DNA from: Pseudomonas sp. L5B5
GTDB lineage: Bacteria; Pseudomonadota; Gammaproteobacteria; Pseudomonadales; Pseudomonadaceae
Direction of reading: 5' to 3'
Assembly (NCBI RefSeq): GCF_020520285.1
Contig: NZ_CP084742.1
Coordinates: 2,604,001 to 2,668,000 of the forward strand
DNA length: 64,000 nucleotides
Shown one piece after another: positions 11,716-30,427 of this stretch (its first letter is position 1; the number at the start of each line of letters is the position of its first letter). A program made the position numbers and the translations under genes. The notes below the pieces were generated by a model. That model was not told where the DNA came from and searched no databases. It saw only the letters and a program-made list of their open reading frames with translations.

Positions 11716-13068
11716 TCAGCCATCCCGGCCCGGGCTGAAAAAGCGGTTTTCCACCCGCGCCAGCCCCAGATGCTCGCGTAAGGTGCGCCCCGTATAGCGC
11801 TGGCGAAACAGGCCACGCCGCTGCAATTGCGGGGTGATCAACTGGACAAAGTCGTCGATGGCCCCCGGCAAATGGGTGAACAGCACATTGAAACCATCGG
11901 CGGCGTATTCCTGGTACCAGGTAACCAGTTCATCGACGATCTGCCCTGGCGTGCCCACCAGCACCTTGTGCCCGCTGGCAGAGAGGCTGCGCAGCAACTG
12001 CGCCAGGGTCGGCCGCTCCCGGCGGATCAGCTCCACCACCAGCTGCCGCCGACTCTGGTGGCGTTCGGTGGGCGCCGCATCGTCCTGCAAGGGCACCTGG
12101 GCATGCAGCGCCAGGCTCGACAGGTCGATGCCCAGGTCCAGCAGATAGGACAAGGCCTTGAGCTGCGCCTGGGGGTCCTGCAACTCCTGCAACTGCTGGT
12201 ACTTCTCTTCGGCTTCGTTGAGGCTGCGCCCCACCGTGGGGGCGATCCCCGGGAAGATCTTCAACTGCCCGGCATGCCGCCCGTAATGGGGTAGCCGTTC
12301 CTTGAGCCCGGCATAAAACGCCTTGGCCTGGGCCAGGTCGGTCTGGGCGGTGAACACCAGCTCGGCGCAGCGTGCAGCCAACTCGCAACCCGGCCCCGAG
12401 GAGCCGGCCTGGGCGATCACCGGCCAGCCCTGCACCGGCCTTGGCGCATTCAACGGGCCCTGGACCTGGAAGTGCCGGCCACGATGCTGCAGCAGGTGCA
12501 TACGGTGCGGGTGCAGCCATATGCCGCTGGCCTTGTCCCGGGGAAAGGCATCATCGGCCCAGCTGTCCCACAGGCCGCTGGCCACATCGAAGAACTCTTC
12601 GGCCCGTTCATAACGCAGGTCATGGCGGGGTGGCTCGGGGTGGTTGAAGTTTTCGCCGCCGATCAGCCCGGTCACCAGGTTCCAGCCAGCCCGTCCGCCG
12701 CTCAGGTGATCCAGGGAGGCGAACTTGCGCGCCAGGTTGTACGGCTCGTTGTAGGAGGTGCTGGCGGTGGCGATCAGCCCGATGTGCCTTGTCACCACCG
12801 CCAGGGCCGGCAGCAGGGTCAAGGGGTCCCAGCGCAGGCTGTAGGCGCTGTGGGCCAGCACCCGCGGATCGAGATCGCCCACCGCCACATTGTCATTGAG
12901 GAACAGGGCATCGAAGCAGCCGCGCTCCAGGGTCTGCGCATAGTGGCGGTAACGCTCGAAGTTCAACGAGGCGTCGGCATCCGCCTGGGGATGGCGCCAG
13001 CTGCCGCCATGGGCGCCAGAGCCCGAAAGAAAGGCCCCCAGCCCCATCTGCCCGCCGCGTTCAGCCAC
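11716..13068 (-). CDS. FMN-dependent luciferase-like monooxygenase (NtaA/SnaA/DmoA type)
   Basis: A 450-aa bacterial-luciferase-fold flavin monooxygenase. Typical segments are DALFLNDNVA, ASTSYNEPYNLARKFASLDHLS and GRAGWNLVTG (~130-140). These enzymes use reduced FMN from a separate reductase to oxidise amines, thioethers or chelators. The GTG start at 13068 overlaps the MFS stop by 8 bp and has GGAGG 8 bp upstream, while the first ATG is seven codons in. Last gene of the cyclodipeptide cluster. It could tailor the product, or it could be an independent scavenging enzyme that merely shares the transcript. Confidence 0.88.
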   Translation of the reverse strand: MAERGGQMGLGAFLSGSGAHGGSWRHPQADADASLNFERYRHYAQTLERGCFDALFLNDNVAVGDLDPRVLAHSAYSLRWDPLTLLPALAVVTRHIGLIATASTSYNEPYNLARKFASLDHLSGGRAGWNLVTGLIGGENFNHPEPPRHDLRYERAEEFFDVASGLWDSWADDAFPRDKASGIWLHPHRMHLLQHRGRHFQVQGPLNAPRPVQGWPVIAQAGSSGPGCELAARCAELVFTAQTDLAQAKAFYAGLKERLPHYGRHAGQLKIFPGIAPTVGRSLNEAEEKYQQLQELQDPQAQLKALSYLLDLGIDLSSLALHAQVPLQDDAAPTERHQSRRQLVVELIRRERPTLAQLLRSLSASGHKVLVGTPGQIVDELVTWYQEYAADGFNVLFTHLPGAIDDFVQLITPQLQRRGLFRQRYTGRTLREHLGLARVENRFFSPGRDG

Positions 13069-14488
13069 GGCTGGCCTCCTCCCGTGCCGCCTGCGCCGGG
13101 GCTGCGACAGTGCGCAGCAACACGCTCACCGATGCCCAGGCCAGCAGGCTGGCCAGGGCCAGGAACCCCATCACCACTTGATAACCGTTGAGGAAAGCCG
13201 CCTGGACATCGCTCGCCGGCGCAGCGGAAAACTGATGGAACAGTCCCACCCCCACGGCCAGGCCAATGCCGCCGCCAACATTGTGCAAGGTCATCAACGA
13301 GCCCATGGCCACCGAACCCACCTCCTGGGGCACCGAGGAAATGCCCAGCACCGTCGACGGCCCGAGGATGCTCGCCCAGCCCAGCCCCATGATCACGAAG
13401 GCGCCCAGCAAGTAAGGCAGGGAGGTCTGGCGCTCGAACCCGGCTTGCAACAGCGCGGACAGGACGAACAGCAGCAGCCCGGTCTTGATCAGCAGCGCCG
13501 GGCCCTTGCGGTCTACCAGTCGTCCCACCAGCGGCGACAGCAGCGCCACGCCCAGGGTGGTGGGCAGCAGCAACAGACCGCTGGCCTGCACCGAGGCACC
13601 GCGAATCTGCGCCAGGTACAGCGGCATGACAAAAAACGCCACGCAATAGAACACCGCCAGGCTGAAGCTCGCCACCACTGCCCCGACGAAACGCCGATTG
13701 GCGAACAGCGTCAGGTCGATGATCGGCGCCTCGACCCGTCGCTCCACCACCAGGAACGCCCCCAGGGCCAGCAGCGCCAGCAGGATCAATCCCAGGACCG
13801 GCGGCGAACCCCAGCCCCAGGCCGCCCCCTGGACAATCACCAGCACCAGGCTCGGCAGGCCGATCAGCAACAGCAGCGCGCCCCAGCCATCGAGCCGGGC
13901 CCCGGCCTCGGCCGAGCGCGACTCCCTGACACTGAAACTGCAGATCCCCAGGCTCAGCAGCACGAACGGCACGTTGATCAGGAAGATCCACTGCCAGCCG
14001 AAGCTGCTGGTGATCAGCCCGCCCAGCACCGGCCCGGCGGCCAGGCCCACTCCGTTGACCCCGAACAGCACACCGAAGGCCCGGCCCTGCTCGGCGCTGT
14101 CGAAGGTGCTGGAGACAATGGCCCCCGAAGCGGTATAGAGCACCGCGCACGCCAGGCCCTGGAGGACCCGGGCCGCGACCAGGGTGTCGATCTGCCCCGC
14201 CAGGCCCGCGGCCAGTGAGGCCAGGCCGAACACACTCAGGCCGATGAACAGCACGCGCTTGCGTCCATGCAAGTCGGCCAGGCGTCCCACCAGCACCATG
14301 AAGCTCGACAGCGCCAGGATGAAACCGTTGATCACCCATTGCAGGCTGTCCACCGAAGCGCCCAGGTCAGCCTGCAAGGCCGGTAGCGCCGTGTTGACGA
14401 TGGTGAAGTCCACACAACCGAGAAAACTGGCGATGCTCACGCCGAGCAATGCCCACCATTTGCGTTGCTGTTGCGCAAAAACGCCCAT
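13061..14488 (-). CDS. DHA2-type MFS drug/metabolite exporter
   Basis: A 475-aa inner-membrane transporter with about 14 predicted spans and family motifs: motif A-like GRLADLHGRKRV, and the DHA2 start FLGCVDFTIVNTALPALQ. It probably expels a product by proton antiport. ATG at 14488 has AAGGAG 6 bp before it, and the 15-codon upstream extension lacks a site. It lies 75 bp after the cyclodipeptide synthase and overlaps the monooxygenase, so it is the natural candidate for export or self-resistance in that pathway. Confidence 0.9.
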   Translation of the reverse strand: MGVFAQQQRKWWALLGVSIASFLGCVDFTIVNTALPALQADLGASVDSLQWVINGFILALSSFMVLVGRLADLHGRKRVLFIGLSVFGLASLAAGLAGQIDTLVAARVLQGLACAVLYTASGAIVSSTFDSAEQGRAFGVLFGVNGVGLAAGPVLGGLITSSFGWQWIFLINVPFVLLSLGICSFSVRESRSAEAGARLDGWGALLLLIGLPSLVLVIVQGAAWGWGSPPVLGLILLALLALGAFLVVERRVEAPIIDLTLFANRRFVGAVVASFSLAVFYCVAFFVMPLYLAQIRGASVQASGLLLLPTTLGVALLSPLVGRLVDRKGPALLIKTGLLLFVLSALLQAGFERQTSLPYLLGAFVIMGLGWASILGPSTVLGISSVPQEVGSVAMGSLMTLHNVGGGIGLAVGVGLFHQFSAAPASDVQAAFLNGYQVVMGFLALASLLAWASVSVLLRTVAAPAQAAREEASRG

Positions 14489-14563
14489 GGAAACTCCTTG
14501 ATTCACAAACCCGGCGACCGTGCTCAATGGCAACGGCCCCAGGCAGACGGAAAGACAAAAGAC

Positions 14564-15313
14564 TCAGATGGCGATGGCGCCGCTGGTCCAGTTGGGGTGG
14601 ATGGCGCCGGGCAAGGTGAACGGAATCGGAATGCCGCGCTTCTTGAACTTCAATGGCAGCCAGCGCACCCGATCCGGGCTGTGGGGCTCGATCAACAACT
14701 CGCGGCTGGTGGCCATGGCCGTGGTCATCTGCTGCGGGTAGAGCACGTAGTGATACCCCTCATCGGCCCACAGCGGCAGGATGATGGGGATCTCCTCGAG
14801 GATGTATTCGCGGCACTGGTCCGCCGCGCGTTCGATATCGGCATGCTCGTCACGCAGGCGCAAACGCTCGGTGAACACGCCAATGGTGCTGTCGATGGCT
14901 TCGCGCAGCTCCGAGCGCTGCTGGTAGACCTGATTGAGCTGCTGGCGCAGTTCGGCATATCGATCGCTGGCCAGTTCCTGGTTCCAGCGAGTGATGTGAT
15001 AAGGCACCCGCAGGCCATCGAGGATGTCCTGGTTGCGCGCCAGCCAGGCATCGCCGTCGCGGATCGACGCCGACAGCGCCTCCCCGGGAGATTTGCCGTG
15101 CTTGTTGTGGCGCTGCAGGGTGTCGGCCACCACCACCTTGACGTGGCTGAAGCCGGACTGGTTGATCAGGTGGATGGTGGAACGCAGCTTCTGGTCCTCG
15201 TGGTATTCCTGGCCGACGCTGACCGCCAGGACCACGCGCTTGCCCTCGAATTCATGCTCCTCGCCCCCCTTGTTGAAGTAGGCCTTGAGGTTGATTTCCT
15301 GCACCTTGCTCAT
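14564..15313 (-). CDS. tRNA-dependent cyclodipeptide synthase (XYP subfamily)
   Basis: A 249-aa protein with the cyclodipeptide synthase layout. The catalytic serine is Ser32 in VLAVSVGQ. Tyr170 and Glu174 appear in REYILEE, and Tyr192-Pro193 in LYPQQ. Pro193 and the Gln (Gln35) in place of Asn put it in the XYP class. The Gly normally two residues before the Ser is Ala30 here. An ITRWNQEL segment and the helix YAELRQQLNQVY also match the family. CDPSs take two aminoacyl-tRNAs and release a cyclic dipeptide. The amino acids used cannot be read by eye. It starts 4 bp after the dioxygenase, so the two are co-expressed. Confidence 0.85.
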   Translation of the reverse strand: MSKVQEINLKAYFNKGGEEHEFEGKRVVLAVSVGQEYHEDQKLRSTIHLINQSGFSHVKVVVADTLQRHNKHGKSPGEALSASIRDGDAWLARNQDILDGLRVPYHITRWNQELASDRYAELRQQLNQVYQQRSELREAIDSTIGVFTERLRLRDEHADIERAADQCREYILEEIPIILPLWADEGYHYVLYPQQMTTAMATSRELLIEPHSPDRVRWLPLKFKKRGIPIPFTLPGAIHPNWTSGAIAI

Positions 15314-15317
15314 GAGT

Positions 15318-16094
15318 TCAGCTCCAGTAGGCCAAAGGCTGTTGTTCGCCGTAGTAACCGATAAAGACGCCGAGGGTGACCCGGGTGCTGGTGGCCGAAG
15401 GGCGCACCGCGTGGATCAACCGCGGATTGAGCAGGATCAGGTCGCCGGGTTCGGGCTTGACCACGAAATCCGGCGGCGGCAGCAGGTGGCGTTCGATGCC
15501 ATAGGCCCGTTCCCCGCGCAGGCGCTCGTATTCCTGTTCGTCGGGCTCGATGCCCCAGATCTCCAGCTCGCCGCCATCCTCGGGAATCTCCAGGTAGATG
15601 TTGGTCGACAGCTGGGTCAGCAACGGTGGGCTGTGGCCTTCGGGGGCATTGCGCTCGAGCTTGTCGGTATGGGGCGTGAGATCGACCCCCGAGCCCTGGA
15701 ATCGGGCGATGCCGACAAAACACTTCTGCCCGCCCACCTGCAGCAGGTGCGCGCCCTGGGGCCAGACCTCGTCCAGCAGCAGGCGCAGCTCGTCGATGGG
15801 CGAGGCCAACGGGCGGAACAGATTGCGGATCTTGCGAATGTTGGGCAGCGCCAACGCGTGGTATTCGGCCCGGCTCTGCTCATCCTGGATCTCGATGTAG
15901 GCCTTGCCGATACGCACGAATTCCTGTTGCTGGCCGAAGGCACTGCGCAGGTCCTGCTGGTACAGGTGGTCGCGGGCCACCTGCAAGGTGTCCGGCGGGC
16001 AGAACCCTTTGAGCTGGACGCCATAGGAGCGTTTTTCCACCACATCGATAATGTGCCGCGCTTCAAGTTTGTCGGCAGTAGTGACTGTAAACAT
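15318..16094 (-). CDS. Fe(II)/2-oxoglutarate-dependent dioxygenase
   Basis: A 258-aa prolyl-hydroxylase-like oxygenase. The facial triad is His142-x-Asp144 (LTPHTDK) and His228 (PRLIHAV), and Arg238 (STRVTLGVF) would bind 2-oxoglutarate. It has no signal peptide, so it acts in the cytoplasm. First gene of the unit and 4 bp from the cyclodipeptide synthase. 2OG oxygenases are the tailoring enzymes in bicyclomycin synthesis, so hydroxylation of the cyclic dipeptide is the reasonable inference. It could also pre-hydroxylate a free amino acid. Confidence 0.88.
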   Translation of the reverse strand: MFTVTTADKLEARHIIDVVEKRSYGVQLKGFCPPDTLQVARDHLYQQDLRSAFGQQQEFVRIGKAYIEIQDEQSRAEYHALALPNIRKIRNLFRPLASPIDELRLLLDEVWPQGAHLLQVGGQKCFVGIARFQGSGVDLTPHTDKLERNAPEGHSPPLLTQLSTNIYLEIPEDGGELEIWGIEPDEQEYERLRGERAYGIERHLLPPPDFVVKPEPGDLILLNPRLIHAVRPSATSTRVTLGVFIGYYGEQQPLAYWS

Positions 16095-16384
16095 GCAAGC
16101 TCCCTTATTCCCTGGAAGTAGCGATGAAGTGCATCTGGGTTGAACGTAATAATTTGTTTCAAGGCCACCTTAGGCATTGGCCAAAGGCTTGTGAAATACC
16201 CTTTGCATCTAATATCCAAACTTAAAAACGTATAGAAAATCAGGCAAATAGCGGCCTTCACAGACACTTTAAAAGCGCTGCGAGAAGATCATGAAATTTA
16301 CTGATAGTTAACTTGAACGAAGAACATTGCTGCTCTTTATATGTTTAAAACCTCCCGAGCTTGATTAATAAAACTGCCATGTAC
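16095..16384. promoter_or_regulatory. AT-rich leader of the cyclodipeptide cluster
   Basis: This 290-bp gap is strikingly AT-rich compared with the genes around it and must hold the minus-strand promoter of the cluster. A 20-bp imperfect inverted repeat (CCTTAGGC-ATTG-GCCAAAGG) lies about 75-95 bp before the dioxygenase start. No regulator gene is adjacent. The low GC also fits acquired DNA or a silenced promoter. Confidence 0.4.
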
Positions 16385-17386: not shown

Positions 17387-19855
<2,469 letters not shown>

Positions 19856-19880
19856 GGCTTCAGATCCTTTTGAAGAGTGC

Positions 19881-20378
19881 TCAGCGCGCTCGGGCGGCAA
19901 CGGTTTCGACTTCGATCAAGGCGCCGGGCAGGACCAATCCCGCCACTTGCACCGTGGTCCGGGCCGGCTTGAGCGGCTGCTTCTCGGTACCGAAGAACTC
20001 GCGGAAGGCGGTTTGCAGGCCATCGAAGTCCAGCTTGCCGCCCAGGGCCGGGTCGCCCACCAGGTAGATACGCAGTTGCACCACATCCCCCAGGCCCAGG
20101 CCCTGGCTGGCAAGGATCGTCTGCACCTTGCCCAACACCACTCGCGCCTGGGCCTCGGTATTGCCCACCGCGTGGATGTGTTCCCTGGCAGCCTTGGGGT
20201 CCACCGGGTCCGGCAGCAGGCCGGACAGGTAGGTCACCTCGCTGTTGGCCGGCAGGGTCACGGCCTGCAGGATCGGCGAGTTGGGATAGGTGGACGGTAT
20301 GCGCTGGATTCCTGCGGCCCAGCTATTGGCGGCAGCGAACAGCAGCCCCAGCCCTACGACGGTTTTTTTCAAAGACAT
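19881..20378 (-). CDS. exported RidA/YjgF/UK114 family protein
   Basis: A 165-aa RidA-fold protein that, unusually, begins with a Sec signal peptide (KKTVVGLGLLFAAANSWA, cleavage after ~22). The family's conserved Arg is present as Arg140 in PARTTVQVAGL, with Glu156 in LIEVETVA. Cytosolic RidA hydrolyses reactive enamines and imines to ketones and ammonia. An exported copy beside a Tat-exported amine oxidase could do the same in the periplasm. It lies 25 bp upstream of the receptor gene and is part of the same transcript. Confidence 0.88.
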   Translation of the reverse strand: MSLKKTVVGLGLLFAAANSWAAGIQRIPSTYPNSPILQAVTLPANSEVTYLSGLLPDPVDPKAAREHIHAVGNTEAQARVVLGKVQTILASQGLGLGDVVQLRIYLVGDPALGGKLDFDGLQTAFREFFGTEKQPLKPARTTVQVAGLVLPGALIEVETVAARAR

Positions 20379-20467: not shown

Positions 20468-22045
20468 TCAGGCGGTTTGCTGTAGCGCCGCGCCCTGCGC
20501 CCGCTGGAACAGTTGCCGCACCACCCGCCGTGCAGCGCCGGCGGCAGCCTCCTGCCAGATGCCCACGCCGCTGTGGGCCAGGCCGTCGCTGGTCAGGTAG
20601 ACCCGGCCCTGGGGCTGGTTGAGCAGGCTGTAGTCCGGCTCGACCACTTCATGGCTGATCCAGGGCCCGAAGTTGTAGGGAATCCGGCTCCAGGCGATCA
20701 CCAGCGGGTTGCGCAGCTCATGGCTGTGGCCCGGGTGCAGCAACTCCACCGCCTCACGGGAAATCTCGATCTGTTGGGCCAGGGTTCTCTCGCCGAATTT
20801 GCGGGCGGTCTCACCGTTGTTGTAGGCCGCCACCAGCACCCCTTCGGCCTGGTTGAAACCGCCGCTGGGGTACCACAGCCCGGAAGCTTCCTGGTTGATG
20901 AAGGACAGCCCGCCGTAGATCTGGTACTGGCTTTCCCAGAAGCGCCGCGACTGCCAGGCCACCTTGTTGGCGTAGCCAAACTGCACGGCGGCGATGGCCT
21001 GGCGCACCGGCGCACTGAAGTTGTTCTGCACCTTGGCCAGCAGCGGCAAGGGCAAGCTGCTGATCACGTAGTCGGCCTCGAGGCGCTGGGTGCGATTGCT
21101 GCGTCGATCCAGGTAAGTCACCTCGACGCCGTCATGGCGATTGCTGATGGAGCGCACCTCGCTGTGCAGCCGCAACTGGCCCTTCAGATGCCGGGCAAAA
21201 GCCTGGGGAATACGGTCCATGCCACCCACCGGCTGGAACATGGTGGGCGAGAATTCCGGGTACTCATCGATCATCAGCGCGGTGGTCAGCGCCGGGTTGA
21301 GCAAGGTCTGCAAGGGCAGCGGATCGTTCTTCTGCGCCAGCTGATCACCCGCCCCGGGCCAGACCTTGTAGCCGGAACGAGCCGAGCCCAGGTATTCGAG
21401 CTTGTCGGACAAATCGCCCCAGGTCTTGAGGAAACTCAGCAGGTTGCCACGATCCGCCACGCTCAGTTCCTGATCCAGGGCGTGGCGGTTGACCGCCTTG
21501 GCCAGCAGTTCGGAGAAGTGCCCGCGACTGTCGTTGACCGCCTGGCGAATCTGCAGCGCCGGCTGGTTCAGGTCCGGACGCACCAGGGCGTTGCGACTGG
21601 TATTGACCAGGACTTCCAGCTCCACCCCCAGTTCACGGCAGTAACCGAGCATCAGCTGGTGGTGGCTTGGCAAGCGACCGGCACCGGCATTGAGATAGAA
21701 ACCCTGGTCGAAGCGCGCCACCTGCACACTGCCGTCGCTGTACTCCACCCGGTCGCCGCCACGCACCGTCCAGTTGCGCCCGCCGACCCGGTCCCGGGCC
21801 TCCAGGAGCGTGACCTTGAACCCGGCCTTGTGCAGCTCGTAGGCACTGACCAGGCCACCGATGCCGGCACCGATCACCACCACCCTGGCGCCCATGCCCA
21901 CCGGCGCGGCCGGCAACGAGGCGTAATTCTCCTCGACCGCCTCGGCATTGCCCGCCATCCCGAACAACCCCATGACCGCGCTCGCCGCCTGGACCCCACC
22001 GACAGCGGCGACACGGGCGATCAATTGTCTTCTGGTCAGCGGCAT
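20468..22045 (-). CDS. Tat-exported FAD-dependent amine oxidase
   Basis: A 525-aa flavin monoamine-oxidase family enzyme. The N-terminus has a twin-arginine signal (LTRRQLIAR followed by a hydrophobic Ala/Gly stretch). The FAD fold starts with VVVIGAGIGGLVSAYE (~54-69) and RVGGRNW. The C-terminal FAD motif is VYLTSDGLAHSGVGIWQEAA. It oxidises a primary or secondary amine or an L-amino acid to the imine with H2O2 or quinone reduction. Export folded with FAD explains the Tat signal. It sits 89 bp upstream of the exported RidA, which could process its imine product. Confidence 0.9.
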   Translation of the reverse strand: MPLTRRQLIARVAAVGGVQAASAVMGLFGMAGNAEAVEENYASLPAAPVGMGARVVVIGAGIGGLVSAYELHKAGFKVTLLEARDRVGGRNWTVRGGDRVEYSDGSVQVARFDQGFYLNAGAGRLPSHHQLMLGYCRELGVELEVLVNTSRNALVRPDLNQPALQIRQAVNDSRGHFSELLAKAVNRHALDQELSVADRGNLLSFLKTWGDLSDKLEYLGSARSGYKVWPGAGDQLAQKNDPLPLQTLLNPALTTALMIDEYPEFSPTMFQPVGGMDRIPQAFARHLKGQLRLHSEVRSISNRHDGVEVTYLDRRSNRTQRLEADYVISSLPLPLLAKVQNNFSAPVRQAIAAVQFGYANKVAWQSRRFWESQYQIYGGLSFINQEASGLWYPSGGFNQAEGVLVAAYNNGETARKFGERTLAQQIEISREAVELLHPGHSHELRNPLVIAWSRIPYNFGPWISHEVVEPDYSLLNQPQGRVYLTSDGLAHSGVGIWQEAAAGAARRVVRQLFQRAQGAALQQTA

Positions 22046-22251: not shown

Positions 22252-23472
22252 CTAGTCGCGAGTCTCAGAGCTTGAGCGTTGGAGATTCATCGCGGCAGCC
22301 TGCGCCGCAGCCAGCACTCTCAGCACATTCGCGCCCCAGATCTTCGCCAGGTCGTCTTCGCTGTAGCCCGCCGCCAGCAGGCGTTCGGTGATGCGTGGCA
22401 GTTGCGCCACATCTTCCAGCCCCTCGACCCCACCGCCGCCGTCCCAATCGGCGCCGATGCCCACATGCTCCGGCCCCACCACCTCAAGGATGTGCAGCAG
22501 GTGCTTCATGTAGTCGTCGAGGGTCGCCCGGGGTTGCGGATAACGGGCCTCCACCTGGCGAATGCGCTCGGCCAGGTCCGCCACCTGCCCGGGACTGAGG
22601 CTGGCGGCCAGGCGAAACTCGCGATACAGCGGCCCCAGGGCCTTGGCGCGCTCGGGATTGGGCACGACGTTGATCAGGTCGCTGGGGAAGCTGTTGACCT
22701 GCACTACCCCGCCCTTGGCCGCCAGGGCTCGCAAGCGCTGGTCATCCAGGTTGCGCGGATGAGGGGTAATGGCCCGGCTGCTGGAATGAGAGGCGATGAT
22801 CGGTGCCGTGGACAGCGCCAGCACCTGGTCGAACACCTGGTCCGAGGCATGGGATACATCCAGCAGGATGCCCAGGCGATTGGCTGCGGCAACCAGCTCG
22901 CGGCCCGCCGGGCTCAGGCCGCGCCACTGGGGCAAGGCAGTGGCCGAGTCGGCGAAATGGTTGTTGGCCGAATGCACCAGGCCCAACATGCGCAGGCCCT
23001 GGCGATGGTAGGTGAGCAAGCGCCCGGGATCAGCGGCCAGGGGCTCGGCATTCTCCATGCTGATGAACACCACCTTCTGGCCACGGGCAACGATGGCCGG
23101 TACATCCTCGGCGCGCAGGGCCAAGGCGAAGTCCTCGGGATAGGCGGCCACCAGGTCGCGGATTCGGGTCAACACCGCCAGGCCGTGTTCGCTGGCCTGG
23201 GTCCGGCCTTCGGCGTCGAGCGGTCCCTGGGGAGTGAAGATCGCCCAGAAGCCACCGTCCAGCCCGCCCTCCTTCATCCGCGGCAGATCGACCTGGGACA
23301 GGTCGTCCTGGTAACGATGGCGCTGGCGGATATCCCAACCCGGCCGGGCCAGTTGCATCGGGGTGTCGAGATGGCTGTCGAGTACGGTCAGGCGTTGATG
23401 CACGGCAGCAGGGTCCTGGGCCAGGGCCCAGGGGCTGGCCAGCGCCAGGGTCAGCAGGGATTGACGCAGCAT
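22252..23472 (-). CDS. exported M19 (renal-type) dipeptidase
   Basis: A 406-aa zinc dipeptidase. It has a short signal peptide (MLRQSLLTLALASPWALA-QD) followed by the metal motif DSHLDTP near residue 32. The bridging and second-site ligands appear around SMENAEP, and further ones in ILLDVSHASD and IIASHSSSRA. The conserved HVGIGADWDGGGG lies near the end. M19 enzymes cleave L,D- or D-containing dipeptides and related amides. Start chosen at 23472 because the signal peptide then lies at the N-terminus; the frame extends upstream into the binding-protein gene without a start. 38 bp after that gene. Confidence 0.9.
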   Translation of the reverse strand: MLRQSLLTLALASPWALAQDPAAVHQRLTVLDSHLDTPMQLARPGWDIRQRHRYQDDLSQVDLPRMKEGGLDGGFWAIFTPQGPLDAEGRTQASEHGLAVLTRIRDLVAAYPEDFALALRAEDVPAIVARGQKVVFISMENAEPLAADPGRLLTYHRQGLRMLGLVHSANNHFADSATALPQWRGLSPAGRELVAAANRLGILLDVSHASDQVFDQVLALSTAPIIASHSSSRAITPHPRNLDDQRLRALAAKGGVVQVNSFPSDLINVVPNPERAKALGPLYREFRLAASLSPGQVADLAERIRQVEARYPQPRATLDDYMKHLLHILEVVGPEHVGIGADWDGGGGVEGLEDVAQLPRITERLLAAGYSEDDLAKIWGANVLRVLAAAQAAAMNLQRSSSETRD

Positions 23473-24485: not shown

Positions 24486-25295
24486 TTAATCGAGAAAGTC
24501 CGGTTCTTCGCGCTGGATGCGCTCGCGATAGGGCTGGAAGCTGAACCAGCCACCGAACTCGGTGCCCACCTGGCGCGCCGTGTGGCGAGCGATCTCATGG
24601 GGAATCGGGCGGGGCGTACCGGCTGCTTCCGCCAGCAACTGGGCCTGGGCGGCGTTGTCCATGGCGATGAAACGCCAGACCGCCGCCTCGACGGTTTCGC
24701 CCACGGTCAGCAGGCCGTGGTTCTGCAGGATCAACGCCTTGTGGCCGTGCAAGGCAGCGGCAATCCGCGCCCCTTCGCTGGCCTCCAGCACCACCCCGGA
24801 GAAGTTGTCGAACAGTGCGTGCCGCTCATAGAAGGCACAGGCGTCCTGGGTCAGTGGATCGAGCAAGCGGCCCAGGCTCGACCAGGCCTTGCCGTACAGC
24901 GAATGGGCATGGGCCGCCGCAACCACCTGTGGCTGGGCTTCATGCAGCGCCGCGTGGATGGCGAACGCCGCCAGGTTCAGTGCGCCCTCGCCCTCGACGA
25001 TGGCGCCGTCGGGGTCCACCAGCAGCAAGTCGCGGACCCGTACATGGCCGAAATACACCCCTACCGGGTTGACCCAGAAATGGTCCGGGCGCCCCGGATC
25101 GCGCACGGTGATGTGGCCGGCGCCACCCATGTCGAACCCCAGCCGGGCGAATACCCGGAACGCCGCCGCCAGGCTCTGCTTGCGTTGCAGCCGCTCAAGC
25201 TCGACGGTGGCCTGCTGGGGCGGATGTTCCCAGCGAAACACCGTATGGCCATCGCGGGGCAGGTCATACACGGCGGGGCGAAACTGTGCGGTCAT
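24486..25295 (-). CDS. class II aldolase/adducin family protein
   Basis: A 269-aa cytosolic class II aldolase-like protein. The zinc motif is AAHAHSLYG, and a later HHL-type position is QNHGLLTVGE. ATG at 25295 is set by AAGGAGAG 7 bp upstream. The fold is shared with the 8.1-kb aldolase, but the two are not close in sequence. Its position after a hydroxyacid dehydrogenase and before the binding protein suggests it trims the carbon skeleton of the imported compound. Substrate unknown. Confidence 0.88.
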   Translation of the reverse strand: MTAQFRPAVYDLPRDGHTVFRWEHPPQQATVELERLQRKQSLAAAFRVFARLGFDMGGAGHITVRDPGRPDHFWVNPVGVYFGHVRVRDLLLVDPDGAIVEGEGALNLAAFAIHAALHEAQPQVVAAAHAHSLYGKAWSSLGRLLDPLTQDACAFYERHALFDNFSGVVLEASEGARIAAALHGHKALILQNHGLLTVGETVEAAVWRFIAMDNAAQAQLLAEAAGTPRPIPHEIARHTARQVGTEFGGWFSFQPYRERIQREEPDFLD

Positions 25296-25363
25296 ATCCA
25301 CTCTCCTTGAAATGGTCATCAATACCCTGCTCCCATCGGCCCTTCTGCGGTCTCAAGATCCCT

Positions 25364-25490
25364 GCGCCTGCTACGCAGCCTTCGGCAGCGGCTACACAAA
25401 CCGGCATTGGCCCTGTTGCCGCTGCCGAGCCCGCGAGACTGCGAAAAGGCCCGCAGGGCCTTGCCTGGCGATCGCCGGAAGACCTGCGCC
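25364..25490. repeat. REPIN-like pair of extragenic palindromes
   Basis: Two REP halves in inverted orientation: one ends GGCAGCGGCTACA (to ~25396), the next begins TGCCGCTGCCGAGCC (from ~25425). The perfect hairpin AAGGCCC-GCA-GGGCCTT follows (25446-25462). It interrupts the operon between the hydroxyacid dehydrogenase and the aldolase, where it may stabilise or attenuate the transcript. Confidence 0.8.
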
Positions 25491-25515
25491 AACCAGCCAA
25501 CGCAAGCACCGCACG

Positions 25516-26454
25516 CTAGTAGCCACGCTGGATCTCCACCGGATTCTCCAGGGGCAGACCATCGCCCCAGCGCTGGAGATTGCGCTCCAGCAGCCGGGCG
25601 ATGTTCAGGTAGACCCCAGGCGAGTTGGCCGAGGTGTGGGGCGACAGATGGATGCGCGGGTGACGGTAGAACGGATGCCCCTCGGGCAGCGGCTCAGGGT
25701 CGGTCACGTCCAGGCTGGCCAGGCCCACACGCCCGCTATCCAGGGCCTGCAACAGCGCCGGCTGATCGATCAGCGCGCCACGGGCGATGTTGATCAGGTG
25801 CAGCCCCGGCTTGGCGGCCGCCAGCACCTGGGCGTCGATGACCTGCCGGGTCTGCTCGGTCAGCGGTGCCGCCAGCAGCAGGTGGTCGGCGCGGGCAAAC
25901 AGTTGATGCAGGTCGGCCACCGCGTCCACCCCGGGAATCTCGAAAGGTTGCGCCGAACGCCGTAGCGCCAGCACTTGCATGCCCAGTGCCAAGGCCTTGG
26001 GTGCCAGCTCCCGGGCGATGCTGCCGAAGCCGTACAGCCCCAGGGTGCTGCCCGCCACTGCGGCCAGCGGTCGTTGCTGCCAGTCTGCGGCGCGCTCGAT
26101 CCAGACCTGGGGCAGTTGCTTGGCGGCGGCGAAGATCGCCGCCAGCGCGAACTCGGCAATGCTTTGTGCGGTGCTGCCGCGGGCGCTGGCCACCGGCAGG
26201 CGCTCGAACAGCCAGGGTGGGAAGTAATCCAGGCCCGAGGTCACCAGTTGCACAAACTGCAAGCCAAAGGGCCAGCCCGCAGGCGGCTGCGGCGCATCGC
26301 GAAAGTCGGCATGGGGTGCGGCCAGCAGCACCTGGATAGTCGGCGGCAGGCCAACGGGCACGCCCCGGGGCAGGTCCAGGACCTCGACCCCGGGCAGCCA
26401 CTGGCGCAGTTGCTGGTTGAAGGCCGCATCGAGCTGGCTGGCGATGTGCTTCAC
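25516..26454 (-). CDS. D-2-hydroxyacid dehydrogenase (GhrA/SerA-like)
   Basis: A 312-aa NAD(P)-dependent dehydrogenase. It has the Rossmann loop GLYGFGSIARELA, catalytic Arg in NIARGALID, Glu in DVTDPEPLPEG, and His in HLSPHTSA. It reduces a 2-keto acid or oxidises a D-2-hydroxyacid. The start is GTG at 26454, which overlaps the upstream dehydrogenase stop by four bases (GTGA). No ATG gives a sensible N-terminus. Translationally coupled within the sulfur-scavenging operon. Confidence 0.9.
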   Translation of the reverse strand: MKHIASQLDAAFNQQLRQWLPGVEVLDLPRGVPVGLPPTIQVLLAAPHADFRDAPQPPAGWPFGLQFVQLVTSGLDYFPPWLFERLPVASARGSTAQSIAEFALAAIFAAAKQLPQVWIERAADWQQRPLAAVAGSTLGLYGFGSIARELAPKALALGMQVLALRRSAQPFEIPGVDAVADLHQLFARADHLLLAAPLTEQTRQVIDAQVLAAAKPGLHLINIARGALIDQPALLQALDSGRVGLASLDVTDPEPLPEGHPFYRHPRIHLSPHTSANSPGVYLNIARLLERNLQRWGDGLPLENPVEIQRGY

Positions 26455-27650
26455 ACCTGGGCTCCGCGGCTGGGCAAAGCAAAGGCGGCGCGCCCGACAG
26501 CCCCCAGGATCGCGTCGTTCTGCGGTGTATGGATGCGACTGCACAGCACATCGCGGTAGTGCCGTTCGATGGGATTGCCCCGGGCCAGCCCCGGGTTGCC
26601 GATGGCCTCGATACCCAGTTCCACCGCGCTGATGGCATTGCTGGTGACCAGGTACTTGATCTGGGTGGCTTCGCTGGCGGCAATCCGTCCTTCGGCGGCG
26701 GCGTCGAGCAACACCCGGTTGTTGAGCAGCAAGGCATCGATGCGGCCGAGCAGTTCCTGGAAACGCGGCAGGCTCGACAATGGCGCGCCGAGGTTGGCCG
26801 GCGTCCGCTGGGCCAGCCAGCCCAGCAGCCAGTCACGGGCGGCGCGGGCCACCCCGTCGTAGATCGCCGACAGCAGCACCGCCAACCAGAGCACGCCCTT
26901 GCTGTCCAGTTCCGAAGGCCGGGGGACATTGGCCGGCTGGATGTCCACCGCCTGCTCCAGGGGCACGAACACCTCGTCGAAGATCACGTCATGGCTGCCG
27001 GTGGCCCGCATGCCCAGGTGATCCCAGGTTTCCTCGACGCTGATCCCGGGGCTGTCGCGGTGCACCAGCCAGGTCCCCACTTGCGGCTCGGCTTCGTCGC
27101 TGCGAGCCCACACCGACAGCCAGGTCAGCCCCGGAATGCCGGTGGAGTAGATCTTGCGCCCGCTGAGCAGCCAGCCGCCCTCGACCCGCCGCGCCAGGGT
27201 CGCCGGCAAACCACCGCGGGCCGGTGTACCCAGGTCCGGCTCGACCCGCAGGGCATTGATCAGGGCTCCGTCACGCACGGCCTCGCGCGCCACCTGCTGG
27301 CGCAGGTGCAGGGGCCAGGCGGTGTTCTGTTGCAGGCGCGTGTGCTGCAAGTACTGCATCACCAGCACCAGGGCGGTGGAAGGCTCGCCCCGGGCCACGG
27401 CGCCCACCACCCGCCGCGCCTGGGCCAGGCTCGCTTCGCTGCCGCCCAGAGCCCGTGGCACGGTCAGGGCCAGCAGGCCATGCTGGTGCAGGCGCCGCAG
27501 GTTGGCATGGGGGAATTCGCTGTGACGATCATAGTGGGCCGCGGTCGCGGCGAACTCCTCGCTCAACTGCTGCAGCAGGTCGGCAAATGCCACGCAATCC
27601 AGGTCAAGCGGGAGCGCAGGGGCGACGGATGGTTCGGTGCAAAGGCTCAT
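26451..27650 (-). CDS. acyl-CoA-dehydrogenase-fold flavin enzyme (SfnB/DszC-like)
   Basis: A 399-aa enzyme of the acyl-CoA dehydrogenase superfamily: helical N-domain, beta-domain with GGWLLSGRKIYSTGIPGLTWLSV, and C-terminal helical domain. I see no clear catalytic Glu of true acyl-CoA dehydrogenases. In this sulfur context it resembles the SfnB/DszC-type flavin monooxygenases that attack organosulfur compounds using reduced flavin. The ATG overlaps the ATPase stop by four bases. Substrate undetermined. Confidence 0.88.
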   Translation of the reverse strand: MSLCTEPSVAPALPLDLDCVAFADLLQQLSEEFAATAAHYDRHSEFPHANLRRLHQHGLLALTVPRALGGSEASLAQARRVVGAVARGEPSTALVLVMQYLQHTRLQQNTAWPLHLRQQVAREAVRDGALINALRVEPDLGTPARGGLPATLARRVEGGWLLSGRKIYSTGIPGLTWLSVWARSDEAEPQVGTWLVHRDSPGISVEETWDHLGMRATGSHDVIFDEVFVPLEQAVDIQPANVPRPSELDSKGVLWLAVLLSAIYDGVARAARDWLLGWLAQRTPANLGAPLSSLPRFQELLGRIDALLLNNRVLLDAAAEGRIAASEATQIKYLVTSNAISAVELGIEAIGNPGLARGNPIERHYRDVLCSRIHTPQNDAILGAVGRAAFALPSRGAQV

Positions 27651-28441
27651 CGGCTGGCAATCCTGCTCAGGGGTGGGGCAACAAGGGTGGCCGGCTCGGC
27701 CTCGGATTCGACGCCCAGTAATTGCAGCAGCCGCCCACGCAGTTGCTGGAACCCGGGAAGGCCGGCCTGGCGCGGGCGCGGCAGGTGGATCGGCAATTGT
27801 TCGGCAATTCGGCCGTTGGCCAGCACCAGCACCCGGTCGGCCAACAGCAGGGCTTCATCGACATCATGGGTCACCAGCAGCACCGCCGGAGCATGGGTGC
27901 GCCACAGACGGATGATCAGCCGGTGCATGCGCATCCGTGTCAGGGCGTCGAGGGCGGCAAAGGGCTCGTCCAGCAGCAACAGTTGCGGCTCGCGCACCAG
28001 GGCCCGGGCCAGGGCCACGCGCTGGGCCTCACCGCCGGACAGGGTGCCGGGCCAGGCTTGCAGTCGATGGGCCAGCCCCACTTCCTCCAGCGCCGCCAGG
28101 GCCCGCTGGCGTACCTGCTCACCACGGACACCGAGGGCGACGTTGCGCCATACACGCTTCCAGGGCATCAACCGTGGCTCCTGGAACACCGCGGCCATGG
28201 CGGCCGGCACCTGCAAACGTCCTTCGTCGATGGGTTCCAGGCCAGCCAGGGCGCGGAGCAAGGTGGTCTTGCCCGAGCCGCTGCTGCCCAGCAGGGCGAC
28301 GAATTCCCCCGGGGCGATGTCCAGGTCCAGGCCATCGAGTACCGCCTGCCCGGCGAAGCGCCGGGTGATGCCACGGCCCTGGACAGCGGTGGACGAACGA
28401 CCCGTCGCAATCGGGCCCAGTGGCGAGGGTGATACGTTCAT
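27647..28441 (-). CDS. SsuB/TauB-like ABC transporter ATPase
   Basis: A 264-aa ATP-binding subunit with every core motif: Walker A GSSGSGKTT (52-60), Q-loop Gln87, signature LSGGEAQR (134-141), Walker B LLLLDEP (154-160) and the switch His in THDVDEA. It energises import of a sulfonate-type substrate at the inner membrane. It lies 3 bp after the permease and overlaps the flavin enzyme. Confidence 0.95.
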   Translation of the reverse strand: MNVSPSPLGPIATGRSSTAVQGRGITRRFAGQAVLDGLDLDIAPGEFVALLGSSGSGKTTLLRALAGLEPIDEGRLQVPAAMAAVFQEPRLMPWKRVWRNVALGVRGEQVRQRALAALEEVGLAHRLQAWPGTLSGGEAQRVALARALVREPQLLLLDEPFAALDALTRMRMHRLIIRLWRTHAPAVLLVTHDVDEALLLADRVLVLANGRIAEQLPIHLPRPRQAGLPGFQQLRGRLLQLLGVESEAEPATLVAPPLSRIASR

Positions 28442-28444
28442 GGC

Positions 28445-29266
28445 TCAGTTCCTGATGAAGGTCGGCCGCCAGGCCAGGGCAAAACGTTCGAGGCCGCGTA
28501 CCAGGGCATCGATGCCCAGGCCGAGCACGCTGTAGACCAGCAGGCAGATGACGATCACGTCGGTGCGCATGAAATCCCGCGCGTCGTTGACCAGGTAGCC
28601 GATACCGGCACTGGCGTTGATCTGCTCCACCACCACCAGGCCCAGCCAGCTGATGCCGAAGGCGTAGCGCAGGCCGACGAAGAATGCCGGCAGGGCCCCG
28701 GGCAGGATCACGTGGACGATCAGCTCCCAGCGCTTGAGCCCCAGCAGGGTCGCGGCCTCCACCAGCTTGGGGTCGAGGCTGCGGATGCCGGAGAACAGCG
28801 TGAGGTAGATGGGAAAGGTGGTGCCCAGGGCGATCAGGGCGATCTTCGGCGTCTCGCCGACCCCGAACCAGAGAATGAACAAGGGCACGATGGCCAGGAA
28901 CGGCAAGGTGCGCAGCATCTGCATCGGCGAGTCGATGGCCAGCTCGCCACGCCGGGACAGGCCGGCCAGCAACGCCAGGACGGTGCCGAGACTGGCGCCG
29001 ATGGCCAGGCCGCCCAACGCCCGCTTGAGGGACACCCACAGGTGAACGCCCAGTTCGCCACTGCTCAGCATGTGCCACAGGGTGCCGCCAATGGTGCTCG
29101 GTGCCGCGATCACCCGCGCTGGCAGCACACCGGTCCGTGAGGCCAGCTCCCACAGCAGCAGGAGCAGCACGGGGCTGGCCAGGCGCAACAGCAACTGGAC
29201 CAGGAACGGGTAGCCGGAGCTGACGGTCCAGCGGGTGGAGCCTTGGAGCGGGGCTTGCGCAGGCAT
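28445..29266 (-). CDS. SsuC/TauC-like ABC transporter permease
   Basis: A 273-aa inner-membrane permease with about six spans and the EAA loop (EAATLLGLKRWELIVHVILPGALP) that contacts the ATPase. First gene of the operon. The 155 bp in front of it (29267-29421) are AT-rich and should carry the promoter. Family: aliphatic sulfonate, taurine or nitrate importers. The surrounding enzymes favour an organosulfur compound. Confidence 0.95.
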   Translation of the reverse strand: MPAQAPLQGSTRWTVSSGYPFLVQLLLRLASPVLLLLLWELASRTGVLPARVIAAPSTIGGTLWHMLSSGELGVHLWVSLKRALGGLAIGASLGTVLALLAGLSRRGELAIDSPMQMLRTLPFLAIVPLFILWFGVGETPKIALIALGTTFPIYLTLFSGIRSLDPKLVEAATLLGLKRWELIVHVILPGALPAFFVGLRYAFGISWLGLVVVEQINASAGIGYLVNDARDFMRTDVIVICLLVYSVLGLGIDALVRGLERFALAWRPTFIRN

Positions 29267-29421: not shown

Positions 29422-30321
29422 TCAGGACGAAGCCTGGCCCACCCGCGCAGCCACCATCTCGCCGAACATGCTCACCGGTTCCTGCAAGTTGCCGAGAAAA
29501 CGCGGATGGATCAGCCACAGGTCGATCACTGGCTTGAAATCGCTGACCGGCACGATCTCCAGCTTGTCCCGGTGGCTGCTGTTTTCCAGCAACGGCAACG
29601 GCACCAGGCCATAACCCAGGCCATTGGCGATCAGGCCCAACTGCAGCTCGGTGCCGAAGGTTTCCAGGTTGATCTGCAGCGTCAGGCCCTGGGCACTCAA
29701 GGCCCGTTGCAAGCCGGCGCGGAAACCGCAGCCATCGGGGTTGAGCACCCAGCCGCGCTGGTAACAGTCGGCCAGCTTGCAGGAGCGCTTGCGCACTTCG
29801 CCCCGAGCCGCCACGACCACCAGGTTCATGCTGCCCAGGGAACGCCCGACCACGGCTTCGGGAAATACCTTGCCGGCGGGAAACAGCGCCGCCACCACGT
29901 CCAGTTCGCCGTTCTCGACCTTGCCCAGCAAATGGCTGCCCCAGCCGGTGGCCACCGAGGTCTGCAATTGCGGATAGAGGGTCTTGAGCTGGCTCAGGGC
30001 ATCGAGCAGCACCACATCGCCGATGGTCTGCGGCACGCCGATGCGCAAGGCGCCGCTGGGGGCACCGTCGTTGGCCACCAGCGCGTTCAGCGCGTCGATG
30101 CTGCGCAATACTTCCAGGCACTGGCCGTAGACCCGCAGGCCCATGCTGGTGGGCTTGAGCGGCTTGGTGTTGCGGTCGAGCAGCTCGACACCAAGGGCCT
30201 CCTCGAAATTCTGTACCCGGCGAGTGATGGCCGGCTGGGTCAGTTGCAGGGCATCGGCGGCCTGGCTGATGGTCTGGCAGCGGATCACCGCCACGAACGC
30301 GTTCAGATCATCTATCTTCAT
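29422..30321 (-). CDS. LysR-type transcriptional regulator
   Basis: A 299-aa LTTR: N-terminal winged HTH (MKIDDLNAFVAVIRC, AADALQLTQPAITRRVQNFEEALG, ELLDRNTKPL), then the effector-binding fold (LRIGVPQTIGDV...). ATG at 30321 is the canonical LTTR start; the open frame to 30429 would cross the shared promoter. It reads away from the thiol dioxygenase (106-bp gap) and towards the ABC operon behind it, so it may control either or both. In P. aeruginosa a LysR gene occupies the same position beside the mercaptopropionate dioxygenase, as I recall it. Confidence 0.93.
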   Translation of the reverse strand: MKIDDLNAFVAVIRCQTISQAADALQLTQPAITRRVQNFEEALGVELLDRNTKPLKPTSMGLRVYGQCLEVLRSIDALNALVANDGAPSGALRIGVPQTIGDVVLLDALSQLKTLYPQLQTSVATGWGSHLLGKVENGELDVVAALFPAGKVFPEAVVGRSLGSMNLVVVAARGEVRKRSCKLADCYQRGWVLNPDGCGFRAGLQRALSAQGLTLQINLETFGTELQLGLIANGLGYGLVPLPLLENSSHRDKLEIVPVSDFKPVIDLWLIHPRFLGNLQEPVSMFGEMVAARVGQASS

Positions 30322-30427
30322 TCTTTTTTCGCATAATAAATGACTGGAAAAATGTTCGATAAGAATAATACCTTTTAGCTCGACCGTGTAGTTCGTGTCG
30401 TTCGTCCAGTGTCCACGGAGGGAATCC

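What the first reader, a model, noticed from the sequence alone, without database searches (positions are those of the whole stretch)
11716..16094. Compact cyclodipeptide gene cluster: 2OG dioxygenase, CDPS, MFS exporter and FMN monooxygenase
Four minus-strand genes separated by 4, 75 and -8 bp encode a cyclodipeptide synthase between a 2-oxoglutarate dioxygenase and an exporter, with a flavin monooxygenase at the end. Bicyclomycin clusters use several 2OG oxygenases plus a P450; here there is one 2OG enzyme and no P450, so a different hydroxylated diketopiperazine is expected. An AT-rich leader stands in front. This is the strongest candidate in the window for an undescribed pathway.
Basis: partly seen in the sequence, partly recalled or inferred. 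Interest (0 to 1): 0.75.

Follow-up and report, generated by a model that had tools for sequence, protein, structure and literature searches.

The report
Cyclic-dipeptide synthesis-and-export gene cassette
Three of the four reported genes form a small cassette, found in several bacterial groups, that should make, oxidise and export a glutamate-containing cyclic dipeptide; here it sits inside a nutrient-uptake gene run whose outer-membrane receptor was found, in the genomes searched, only where the cassette is.

Summary
The four genes and stated gaps are real. The conserved unit is three: 2OG oxygenase–CDPS–MFS exporter, in this order in 57 of 80 CDPS loci scanned (23 Pseudomonas; 34 from Streptomyces, Actinomadura, Nocardia, Gordonia and five other genera), among them a near-identical copy of the solved Nocardia brasiliensis cyclo(Ala-Glu) synthase. 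The FMN monooxygenase is accessory: missing from 4 of 20 close Pseudomonas loci and, at that place, from all other trios. The CDPS has Ala where cyclo(Ala-Glu) synthases have Leu; published data tie that exchange to cyclo(Leu-Glu). I predict hydroxylated cyclo(Leu-Glu), not a bicyclomycin relative. In Pseudomonas the trio sits between TonB receptor–SsuA and FMO genes of an organosulfur-type run. Receptors of 71% identity or more occur in exactly the 12 of 199 genomes with the CDPS, and one lineage seems to have exchanged the oxygenase under the same receptor and exporter. Elsewhere 11 of 34 trios have importer or receptor genes within about 2.5 kb; 23 do not. This suggests a secreted and recovered molecule; no convincing metal-regulator box was found, and recovery is inference. 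The 2OG–CDPS pairing was noted in 2010.

The parts
15318..16094 (-). 2OG-Fe(II) oxygenase, WelO5/HilA/SadA-like, HxD...H + R complete: predicted hydroxylase (not halogenase) of the cyclodipeptide
   Evidence: Pfam/NCBIfam; H142, D144, H228, R238 invariant in 27 of 27 rows; AlphaFold model pLDDT 88, best PDB matches WelO5
14564..15313 (-). XYP-type cyclodipeptide synthase; S32, Y170, E174, Y192-P193 kept; A30 at the P1 position that is L32 in Nbra-CDPS: predicted cyclo(Leu-Glu) synthase
   Evidence: model pLDDT 89.6, Nbra-CDPS rmsd 1.2 A, TMt 0.95, 44% identity
13061..14488 (-). MFS DHA2/EmrB-type exporter
   Evidence: TIGR00711 above cut-off; third member of the trio in 57 of 80 loci
11716..13068 (-). 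NtaA/DmoA-family FMNH2 monooxygenase; overlaps MFS by 8 bp; accessory, probably from the organosulfur-type operon
   Evidence: TIGR03860 529 bits; absent in 4 of 20 clade-A loci and at this place in the other 37 trios
16095..16384 (-). AT-rich (39% GC) SsuA-2OG intergenic region, likely a promoter/junction of the trio; no convincing Fur or IdeR match, no Rfam match at a gathering score
16385..17386 (-). SsuA-type periplasmic binding protein
   Evidence: TIGR01728 206.5 bits, cut-off 163.5
17387..19900 (-). TonB-dependent receptor; orthologues (71% or more) in the 12 CDPS-positive and none of 187 CDPS-negative Pseudomonas genomes searched
19881..20378 (-). RidA-family (enamine/imine deaminase-like) protein with a signal-peptide-like start
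   Evidence: PF01042; N-terminus read by eye
20468..22045 (-). FAD L-amino-acid-oxidase-like protein with a twin-arginine-like start (by eye)
   Evidence: PF01593; closest PDB 2jae L-amino acid oxidase E 1.3e-79
22252..23472 (-). M19 membrane-dipeptidase family protein (start at an internal ATG, chosen by me)
   Evidence: PF01244; upstream in most clade-A loci that reach so far, and beside the MFS in L056
23511..24473 (-). second NMT1/SsuA-like binding protein (SBP2); TIGR01728 150.7 bits, under its cut-off
24486..29266 (-). class II aldolase, 2-hydroxyacid dehydrogenase, acyl-CoA-dehydrogenase/SfnB-like flavoprotein (under the SfnB cut-off), ABC ATPase (27647-28441, typed by eye), ABC permease: organosulfur-type uptake genes of the same run
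29422..30429 (-). LysR-family regulator at the head of the run; divergent cysteine-dioxygenase-like (30395) and four-rhodanese (31054) genes follow

Best explanation
A biosynthesis-and-export cassette, 2OG-CDPS-MFS, set into an older TonB-SsuA organosulfur-type uptake operon. Shown by sequence and structure: an XYP cyclodipeptide synthase of the X-Glu clade with intact catalytic residues, a 2OG oxygenase with a complete HxD/H/R site, a DHA2 exporter, conserved as a trio across phyla. Inferred, in falling order of confidence: (a) the CDPS uses Glu-tRNA as second substrate; (b) Ala at the P1 position makes Leu (perhaps Met, Ile or Phe too) the first substrate, so cyclo(L-Leu-L-Glu); (c) the 2OG enzyme hydroxylates the cyclodipeptide, probably on the Glu half, because the same oxygenase family serves both the Ala-Glu and the Leu-Glu type; (d) the MFS protein exports it; (e) in Pseudomonas the TonB receptor and SsuA protein bring it, or a complex of it, back. 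The FMN monooxygenase is an accessory from the organosulfur operon, not a required tailoring enzyme.
For: Trio order in 20/20 clade-A and 3/3 clade-B Pseudomonas loci and 34 others; 5 Photorhabdus loci keep CDPS-MFS and carry a DIOX_N-type 2OG gene at the 2OG position; 18 remoter CDPS loci lack the trio. In 12 Streptomyces and 5 Xenorhabdus/Burkholderia-type loci only trio genes were shared with two or more others. L059 holds a copy of Nbra-CDPS, 215 of 217 residues identical. A30 in all clade-A rows, L in all other trio CDPS rows; Ala/Leu there goes with cLE/cAE in natural enzymes (PMC5816076 passage) and Nbra L32A/L32G makes cLE (PMC13062777 section). TonB receptor of 71% identity or more in 12 of 12 CDPS-positive and 0 of 187 CDPS-negative genomes; 15 such receptors form one clade, 100/100. 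The 2OG tree rejects clades A + B as one clade (p-AU 0.0034) while MFS supports them 100/99. Importer or receptor genes near the trio in 11 of 34 non-Pseudomonas loci; SBP_bac_5 background in the seven genomes with an adjacent Opp-type operon is 0.9-2.3 per Mb.
Against: No product has been seen. The residue after the catalytic Glu also differs (Nbra C177, here I175, numbering counted by me); whether it narrows P1 is untested. 23 of 34 non-Pseudomonas trios, all 12 Streptomyces among them, have no importer found nearby. No convincing metal-regulator box. SsuA and FMO kin point to organosulfur uptake, so re-import is not shown. The CDPS tree alone does not reject A + B (p-AU 0.18). M19, oxidase, RidA and FMO are not tied to the trio outside clade A, except M19 in L056.
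Confidence: 0.6

Rival explanations
1. Co-regulation only: the trio makes an antibiotic or signal under sulfur limitation, and the TonB/SsuA/FMO/oxidase genes simply import and use an unrelated organosulfur compound.
For: CDPS-negative Pseudomonas loci L194-L196 have much of the same set without the trio: TonB, SsuA, FMO and acyl-CoA-DH-like genes in 3 of 3, hydroxyacid DH in 2 of 3 (L196 ends before it), LysR-CDO in 2, rhodanese-type in 3, SBP2 in 2, oxidase-RidA in 1; TauD in the 2 tested. SsuA, SfnB-like and rhodanese families point to sulfur.
Against: Receptor orthologues only in CDPS-positive genomes; importers of other families near trios in other phyla.
Confidence: 0.3
2. One reading: the FMN monooxygenase is a dedicated second tailoring enzyme (for example N-hydroxylation) acting after the 2OG enzyme.
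For: 8 bp overlap with MFS; FMO orthologues of 70% or more in 9 of 12 CDPS-positive genomes against 1 of 187 others; at this place only behind A30-type CDPS.
Against: Absent in 4 of 20 clade-A loci and, at this place, in all 37 trios outside clade A; other FMOs of the family sit with TonB/SBP genes without CDPS.
Confidence: 0.15
3. A nutrient cycle: the run is mainly catabolic, and M19 dipeptidase, amino-acid oxidase and RidA break down the imported (cyclo)dipeptide in the periplasm.
For: M19, oxidase and RidA upstream in clade A, M19 beside the MFS in L056; an amidohydrolase inside the importer operon of Actinomadura.
Against: Oxidase and RidA were not found in the clade-B stretches and do occur in CDPS-negative L186 and L194.
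Confidence: 0.15

Closest known systems
Nbra-CDPS of Nocardia brasiliensis (PDB 5MLQ, 9I5M; cyclo(Ala-Glu) synthase)
   Same: 44% identity, rmsd 1.2 A, same XYP subfamily and catalytic residues; a copy 215/217 identical stands in the same 2OG-CDPS-MFS order (L059)
   Different: Ala instead of Leu at the P1 position, so cyclo(Leu-Glu) is expected; no TonB/SsuA genes beside it
cLE (XYP) specificity group of PMC5816076
   Same: Ala at the second P1 residue
   Different: I could not read its member list, so whether a Pseudomonas member was tested is unknown
WelO5 / SadA / HilA 2OG enzymes
   Same: best fold and sequence matches
   Different: 19-22% identity to WelO5 in the fold alignments; Asp present where WelO5 halogenases have Gly; a cyclodipeptide as expected substrate
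Bicyclomycin cluster
   Same: CDPS plus 2OG chemistry plus MFS exporter (exporter recalled)
   Different: one 2OG, no P450; X-Glu type CDPS instead of cyclo(Ile-Leu)
Opine-type metallophores (staphylopine, pseudopaline)
   Same: MFS exporter with Opp-type, FecCD-type or TonB importer beside the synthesis genes (PMC7438024 passages)
   Different: synthesis by CDPS + 2OG; no nicotianamine-synthase-like or opine-dehydrogenase gene among the genes typed; no convincing metal-regulator box

Membership tests
Cyclodipeptide synthase, XYP subfamily | catalytic Ser, Tyr, Glu, Tyr and Y-P motif | tested here: met
   S32, Y170, E174, Y192, P193 invariant in the 22 and 21 rows
Cyclodipeptide synthase, XYP subfamily | CDPS fold | tested here: met
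   Nbra-CDPS TMt 0.95
Cyclodipeptide synthase, XYP subfamily | makes a cyclodipeptide from aminoacyl-tRNAs | not testable with these tools
   needs expression
cLE specificity group | Ala at second P1 residue (Nbra L32) | tested here: met
   A30; rule from PMC5816076 and PMC13062777
cLE specificity group | whole P1/P2 consensus motif | not tested
   motifs are printed as logos, not held as text
2OG-Fe(II) hydroxylase, WelO5-like | HxD...H iron triad and Arg for 2OG | tested here: met
   H142, D144, H228, R238 invariant
WelO5-type halogenase | HxG/HxA in place of HxD | tested here: not met
   D144
Bicyclomycin pathway | several 2OG enzymes plus a P450 | tested here: not met
   one 2OG, no P450 among the typed genes of the run; cluster content from the start of the abstract of PMC5930311 (listing), the finding and recall
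Metallophore system | exporter and dedicated importer linked to synthesis genes | tested here: inconclusive
   linked in Pseudomonas and 11 of 34 other trios, not found in 23 of 34
Metallophore system | metal-responsive regulator site | tested here: inconclusive
   30 upstream regions, recalled consensus words: Fur and IdeR, with 60 shuffles each, nothing convincing except L034 Fur (6 mismatches of 19, 0 of 60 shuffles); Zur and Nur had no shuffle control, best 3 of 15 (L027) and 2 of 13 mismatches (AT-rich L068)
Metallophore system | product binds a metal | not testable with these tools
   needs the compound

The most novel reading that the evidence does not exclude
A class of tRNA-dependent metallophore-like shuttle: a CDPS and one 2OG oxygenase make a hydroxylated cyclo(X-Glu) whose hydroxy-glutamyl part binds a metal or other cargo; an MFS protein exports it and lineage-specific importers (TonB/SsuA, Opp/Nik-type ABC, FecCD) recover it. 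The first residue (Ala or Leu) acts as a changeable tag: in Pseudomonas the oxygenase, and perhaps the synthase, was exchanged under an unchanged receptor and exporter.
Probability: 0.22. Interest if true: 0.8.

Novelty: new variant of a known kind. Interest (0 to 1): 0.5.

Why it matters
Nbra-CDPS, the cyclo(Ala-Glu) synthase of this clade, has six PDB entries, yet the papers that my searches listed do not say what such products are for. A conserved 2OG-CDPS-MFS cassette, a one-residue prediction of cyclo(Leu-Glu) against cyclo(Ala-Glu), and a receptor that tracks the synthase make that question directly testable with three genes and one receptor knock-out. If recovery is right, cyclodipeptides gain a role besides antibiotics, pigments and signals.

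Tried and rejected
Bicyclomycin-like product: rejected on CDPS type and gene content. Halogenase: rejected, Asp present. Iron, zinc or nickel control: scans with recalled boxes upstream of 2OG genes found nothing convincing; Zur and Nur had no control, and regions before importer genes were not scanned. Riboswitch in the AT-rich leader: no Rfam match in 9800-31000 that reached a gathering score; three weak ones elsewhere. FMO as core gene: rejected by distribution. Simple insertion of the trio between SsuA and FMO: order agrees with L194-L196, but FMO there is only 41-43% identical and nearer kin (56-57%) lie beside other TonB genes (L185-L187), so an FMO exchange is not excluded. The pair L063-Opp importer is weak: that genome has 34 SBP_bac_5 matches, many of them fragments. 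Photorhabdus dpp genes may be core genes beside an island; not counted among the 11. Also not counted: the heme-like TonB gene with a Slam gene near L068, and a sugar-type ABC system on the other strand 1-4 kb from L067. First TonB tree is void in part: at least six paralogue rows (L165, L166, L171, L174, L175, L182) were read in a wrong frame; one search replaces it. Trees used 37 of the 80 loci plus the window; two 2OG rows (L037 too short, L041 none) fell out.
Full report
What is there. Four minus-strand genes stand as described. Reading order: 2OG oxygenase (15318-16094), CDPS (14564-15313), MFS exporter (13061-14488), NtaA/DmoA FMN monooxygenase (11716-13068); gaps 4, 75 and -8 bp. Family searches agree. 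The window lies in a 6.8 Mb single-contig genome; the nearest named CDPS genes are from Pseudomonas sp. PH1b and the P. protegens/P. piscis group, so I take it for a member of that group (inference).

The conserved unit is three genes. One scan of genome contigs confirmed 98 relatives of the CDPS, of which 80 loci were returned. I mapped eight window proteins on all 80, plus 11 stretches of unnamed Pseudomonas genomes, by tblastn. 20 loci are close Pseudomonas ones (clade A: L013-L031, L047; CDPS 74-98% identical), 3 are remoter Pseudomonas (clade B: L049, L056, L063; 41-43%), 34 are other genera with the trio, 5 are Photorhabdus with CDPS-MFS, and 18 remoter CDPS loci have no trio. Single trio genes look broken in L031 (CDPS), L051 (MFS) and L065 (2OG). 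In the Photorhabdus loci a DIOX_N/2OG-FeII_Oxy gene stands at the place of the 2OG gene (typed in L038; 95-98% copies in the other four). In all-against-all comparison of 12 Streptomyces loci and of 5 Xenorhabdus/(Para)Burkholderia loci only trio genes were shared with two or more other loci; among 10 Nocardia-type loci some neighbours are shared within subgroups. The FMN monooxygenase is present in 16 of 20 clade-A loci (missing in L022, L024, L047; only a short 52% fragment in L015), and at that place in none of the clade-B or other trio loci; L049 has a 46% relative elsewhere, on the other strand.

What the synthase should make. The CDPS keeps S32, Y170, E174, Y192 and P193, so it is of the XYP subfamily; the AlphaFold model (mean pLDDT 89.6) fits Nbra-CDPS with rmsd 1.2 A over 221 columns at 44% identity. 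Nbra-CDPS makes cyclo(Ala-Glu) and its L32A and L32G variants make cyclo(Leu-Glu) at the expense of cyclo(Ala-Glu) (PMC13062777, passages and sections 24 and 25 read). PMC5816076 (passages read) says that earlier analyses suggested that Ala or Leu at this position goes with cLE or cAE. The window has Ala (A30); every clade-A row has Ala, and every other trio CDPS in the table, clade B included, has Leu. Nbra S199 of the Glu cleft is T197 here. Hence cyclo(Leu-Glu) is the prediction. A caution: Nbra C177 (counted by me) is Ile here, and its effect on the pocket is untested. L059 contains a copy of Nbra-CDPS (215 of 217 residues), so the characterised enzyme sits in the same trio.

What the oxygenase should do. 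H142, D144, H228 and R238 are invariant in 27 aligned rows, so the iron and 2OG sites are complete and Asp stands where WelO5 halogenases have Gly. The model (pLDDT 88) matches WelO5-type entries (TMq 0.76-0.83, the first 17 rows) and then the N-substituted amino-acid dioxygenase 3w20. As the same family serves X = Ala and X = Leu trios, hydroxylation of the shared Glu half is the simplest reading, but this is inference.

The wider Pseudomonas locus. Upstream on the same strand stand SsuA, TonB receptor, RidA, L-amino-acid-oxidase-like, M19 dipeptidase, SBP2, class II aldolase, hydroxyacid dehydrogenase, SfnB-like flavoprotein, ABC ATPase (by eye) and permease, then LysR, with cysteine-dioxygenase-like and rhodanese genes divergent. 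Of 20 clade-A loci 19 reach so far: oxidase, RidA and TonB are in 19 of 19 (TonB cut short in L028); SsuA is in 19 of 20 (not found in L028, in two pieces in L023). In 199 Pseudomonas genomes the CDPS is in 12, and a receptor of 71% identity or more is in the same 12 (a partial one in G025) and in none of the other 187; the next is 59%. Only four candidates per genome were scored. In one search an FMO of 70% or more is in 9 of these 12 and in 1 of 187 (G102). The corrected receptor tree puts the 15 CDPS-linked receptors of clades A and B in one clade (100/100, stem 0.73), apart from 15 receptors of CDPS-negative genomes and from the Burkholderia L072 receptor.

Exchange of enzymes under one transport frame. 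The MFS tree holds clades A and B together (100/99), and so does the receptor tree, while the 2OG tree puts clade B with Burkholderia and Xenorhabdus (100/98) and rejects A + B (p-AU 0.0034). The CDPS tree also separates them but does not reject A + B (p-AU 0.18). I named the groups after seeing identities and trees, which weakens the p-value.

Origin of the frame. Three CDPS-negative loci with the sister receptor (L194-L196) carry TonB, SsuA, FMO and SfnB-like genes, hydroxyacid dehydrogenase in two, with TauD, LysR-CDO-rhodanese, SBP2 or oxidase-RidA in part of them; SsuA and FMO are neighbours there. So the trio seems to have entered an organosulfur-type operon between SsuA and FMO. FMO identity there is only 41-43%, against 56-57% for FMOs beside other TonB genes (L185-L187), so the picture may be a mosaic.

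Importers near trios elsewhere. Of 34 non-Pseudomonas trios, 7 have an Opp/Nik-type ABC operon within about 1.3 kb after the MFS gene (Actinomadura L032, L033; Gordonia L062, L066; Nocardia L064, L081; Mycolicibacterium L069), 3 have a FecCD-type system about 2.3 kb on, behind two other genes in L059 (L058-L060), 1 has TonB receptors on both sides (L072): 11 of 34; 23 have none within the held stretch, all 12 Streptomyces among them, and some of these contigs are short. The seven Opp cases may be one or two events. SBP_bac_5 matches number 4-17 per genome there, 0.9-2.3 per Mb, so one within 4 kb on one side is expected in under 1% of cases. MFS exporter plus Opp-type, FecCD-type or TonB importer is the layout described for opine-like zincophores (PMC7438024, passages). 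Against metal: in 30 upstream regions no convincing Fur or IdeR match, L034 alone standing out for Fur with 6 mismatches in 19 and 0 of 60 shuffles; Zur and Nur words were compared without a control.

What is known. PMC2922099 (passages) noted 2OG genes beside CDPS in P. fluorescens and Burkholderia sp. 383 in 2010. PMC8719888 (passages) used a P. protegens CDPS as a BLAST query and lists cyclodipeptides among clusters not found in its strains. Searches for a product, a metallophore or an export-import role of this cassette listed no paper whose title or abstract start claims one; subscription papers are mostly not in that library, and Jacques 2015, on which the cLE rule rests, I did not read.

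Verdict. Ordinary enzymes in a real, conserved and largely unexplored cassette; the four-gene reading is corrected to three plus an uptake frame; the recovery idea is the part worth testing.

Noticed in passing
G000:C1:6525282-6526040 (window's own genome) and 40 CDPS-negative Pseudomonas genomes: A 32-37% paralogue of the 2OG oxygenase stands in genomes or places without CDPS; the three copies aligned keep HxD/H/R, and two of them lie near HAD-hydrolase and EamA (L192) or LysE-type exporter (L189) genes: perhaps another small exported hydroxylated metabolite.
   Followed up: partly
L038, L039, L041-L043 (Photorhabdus): CDPS-MFS-OPT transporter behind dpp-type genes, with a DIOX_N-type 2OG gene in place of the WelO5-like one: a non-orthologous replacement of the oxygenase.
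   Followed up: partly
L062 and kin; family TIGR04028: The Opp-type binding protein behind the Gordonia trio scores best with TIGR04028 (KPN_01854), though under its cut-off; by its name a luciferase-like monooxygenase family TIGR04027 (KPN_01858) comes from the same region of a Klebsiella genome (my reading of the names), a possible sulfur link.
   Followed up: no
L032:10229-11419, L033:13584-14729, L040:741-1904: Amidohydrolase gene inside the importer operon of Actinomadura, and a 52% relative about 6 kb upstream of a Streptomyces trio: possible cyclic-dipeptide or dipeptide hydrolase.
   Followed up: partly
L028/L100, L023, L031, L015, L051, L065: Decay or frame breaks in single strains: TonB gene cut short with SsuA not found (P. 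parasichuanensis), SsuA (L023), CDPS (L031), MFS (L051) and 2OG (L065) in pieces, FMO reduced to a fragment (L015).
   Followed up: no
window 16185-16230: About 40 bases of the AT-rich leader are nearly identical in the P. protegens group and partly kept in TH43, MF4836 and Irchel 3E20 (A2); no known regulator site recognised. P. fuscovaginae and P. gingeri have a SsuA-2OG gap of under 50 bases.
   Followed up: partly
L186 (genome G067): CDPS-negative Pseudomonas run with oxidase, RidA, two FMOs, class II aldolase, SBP2, TonB and an Opp-type ABC importer: a related catabolic module of unknown substrate.
   Followed up: partly
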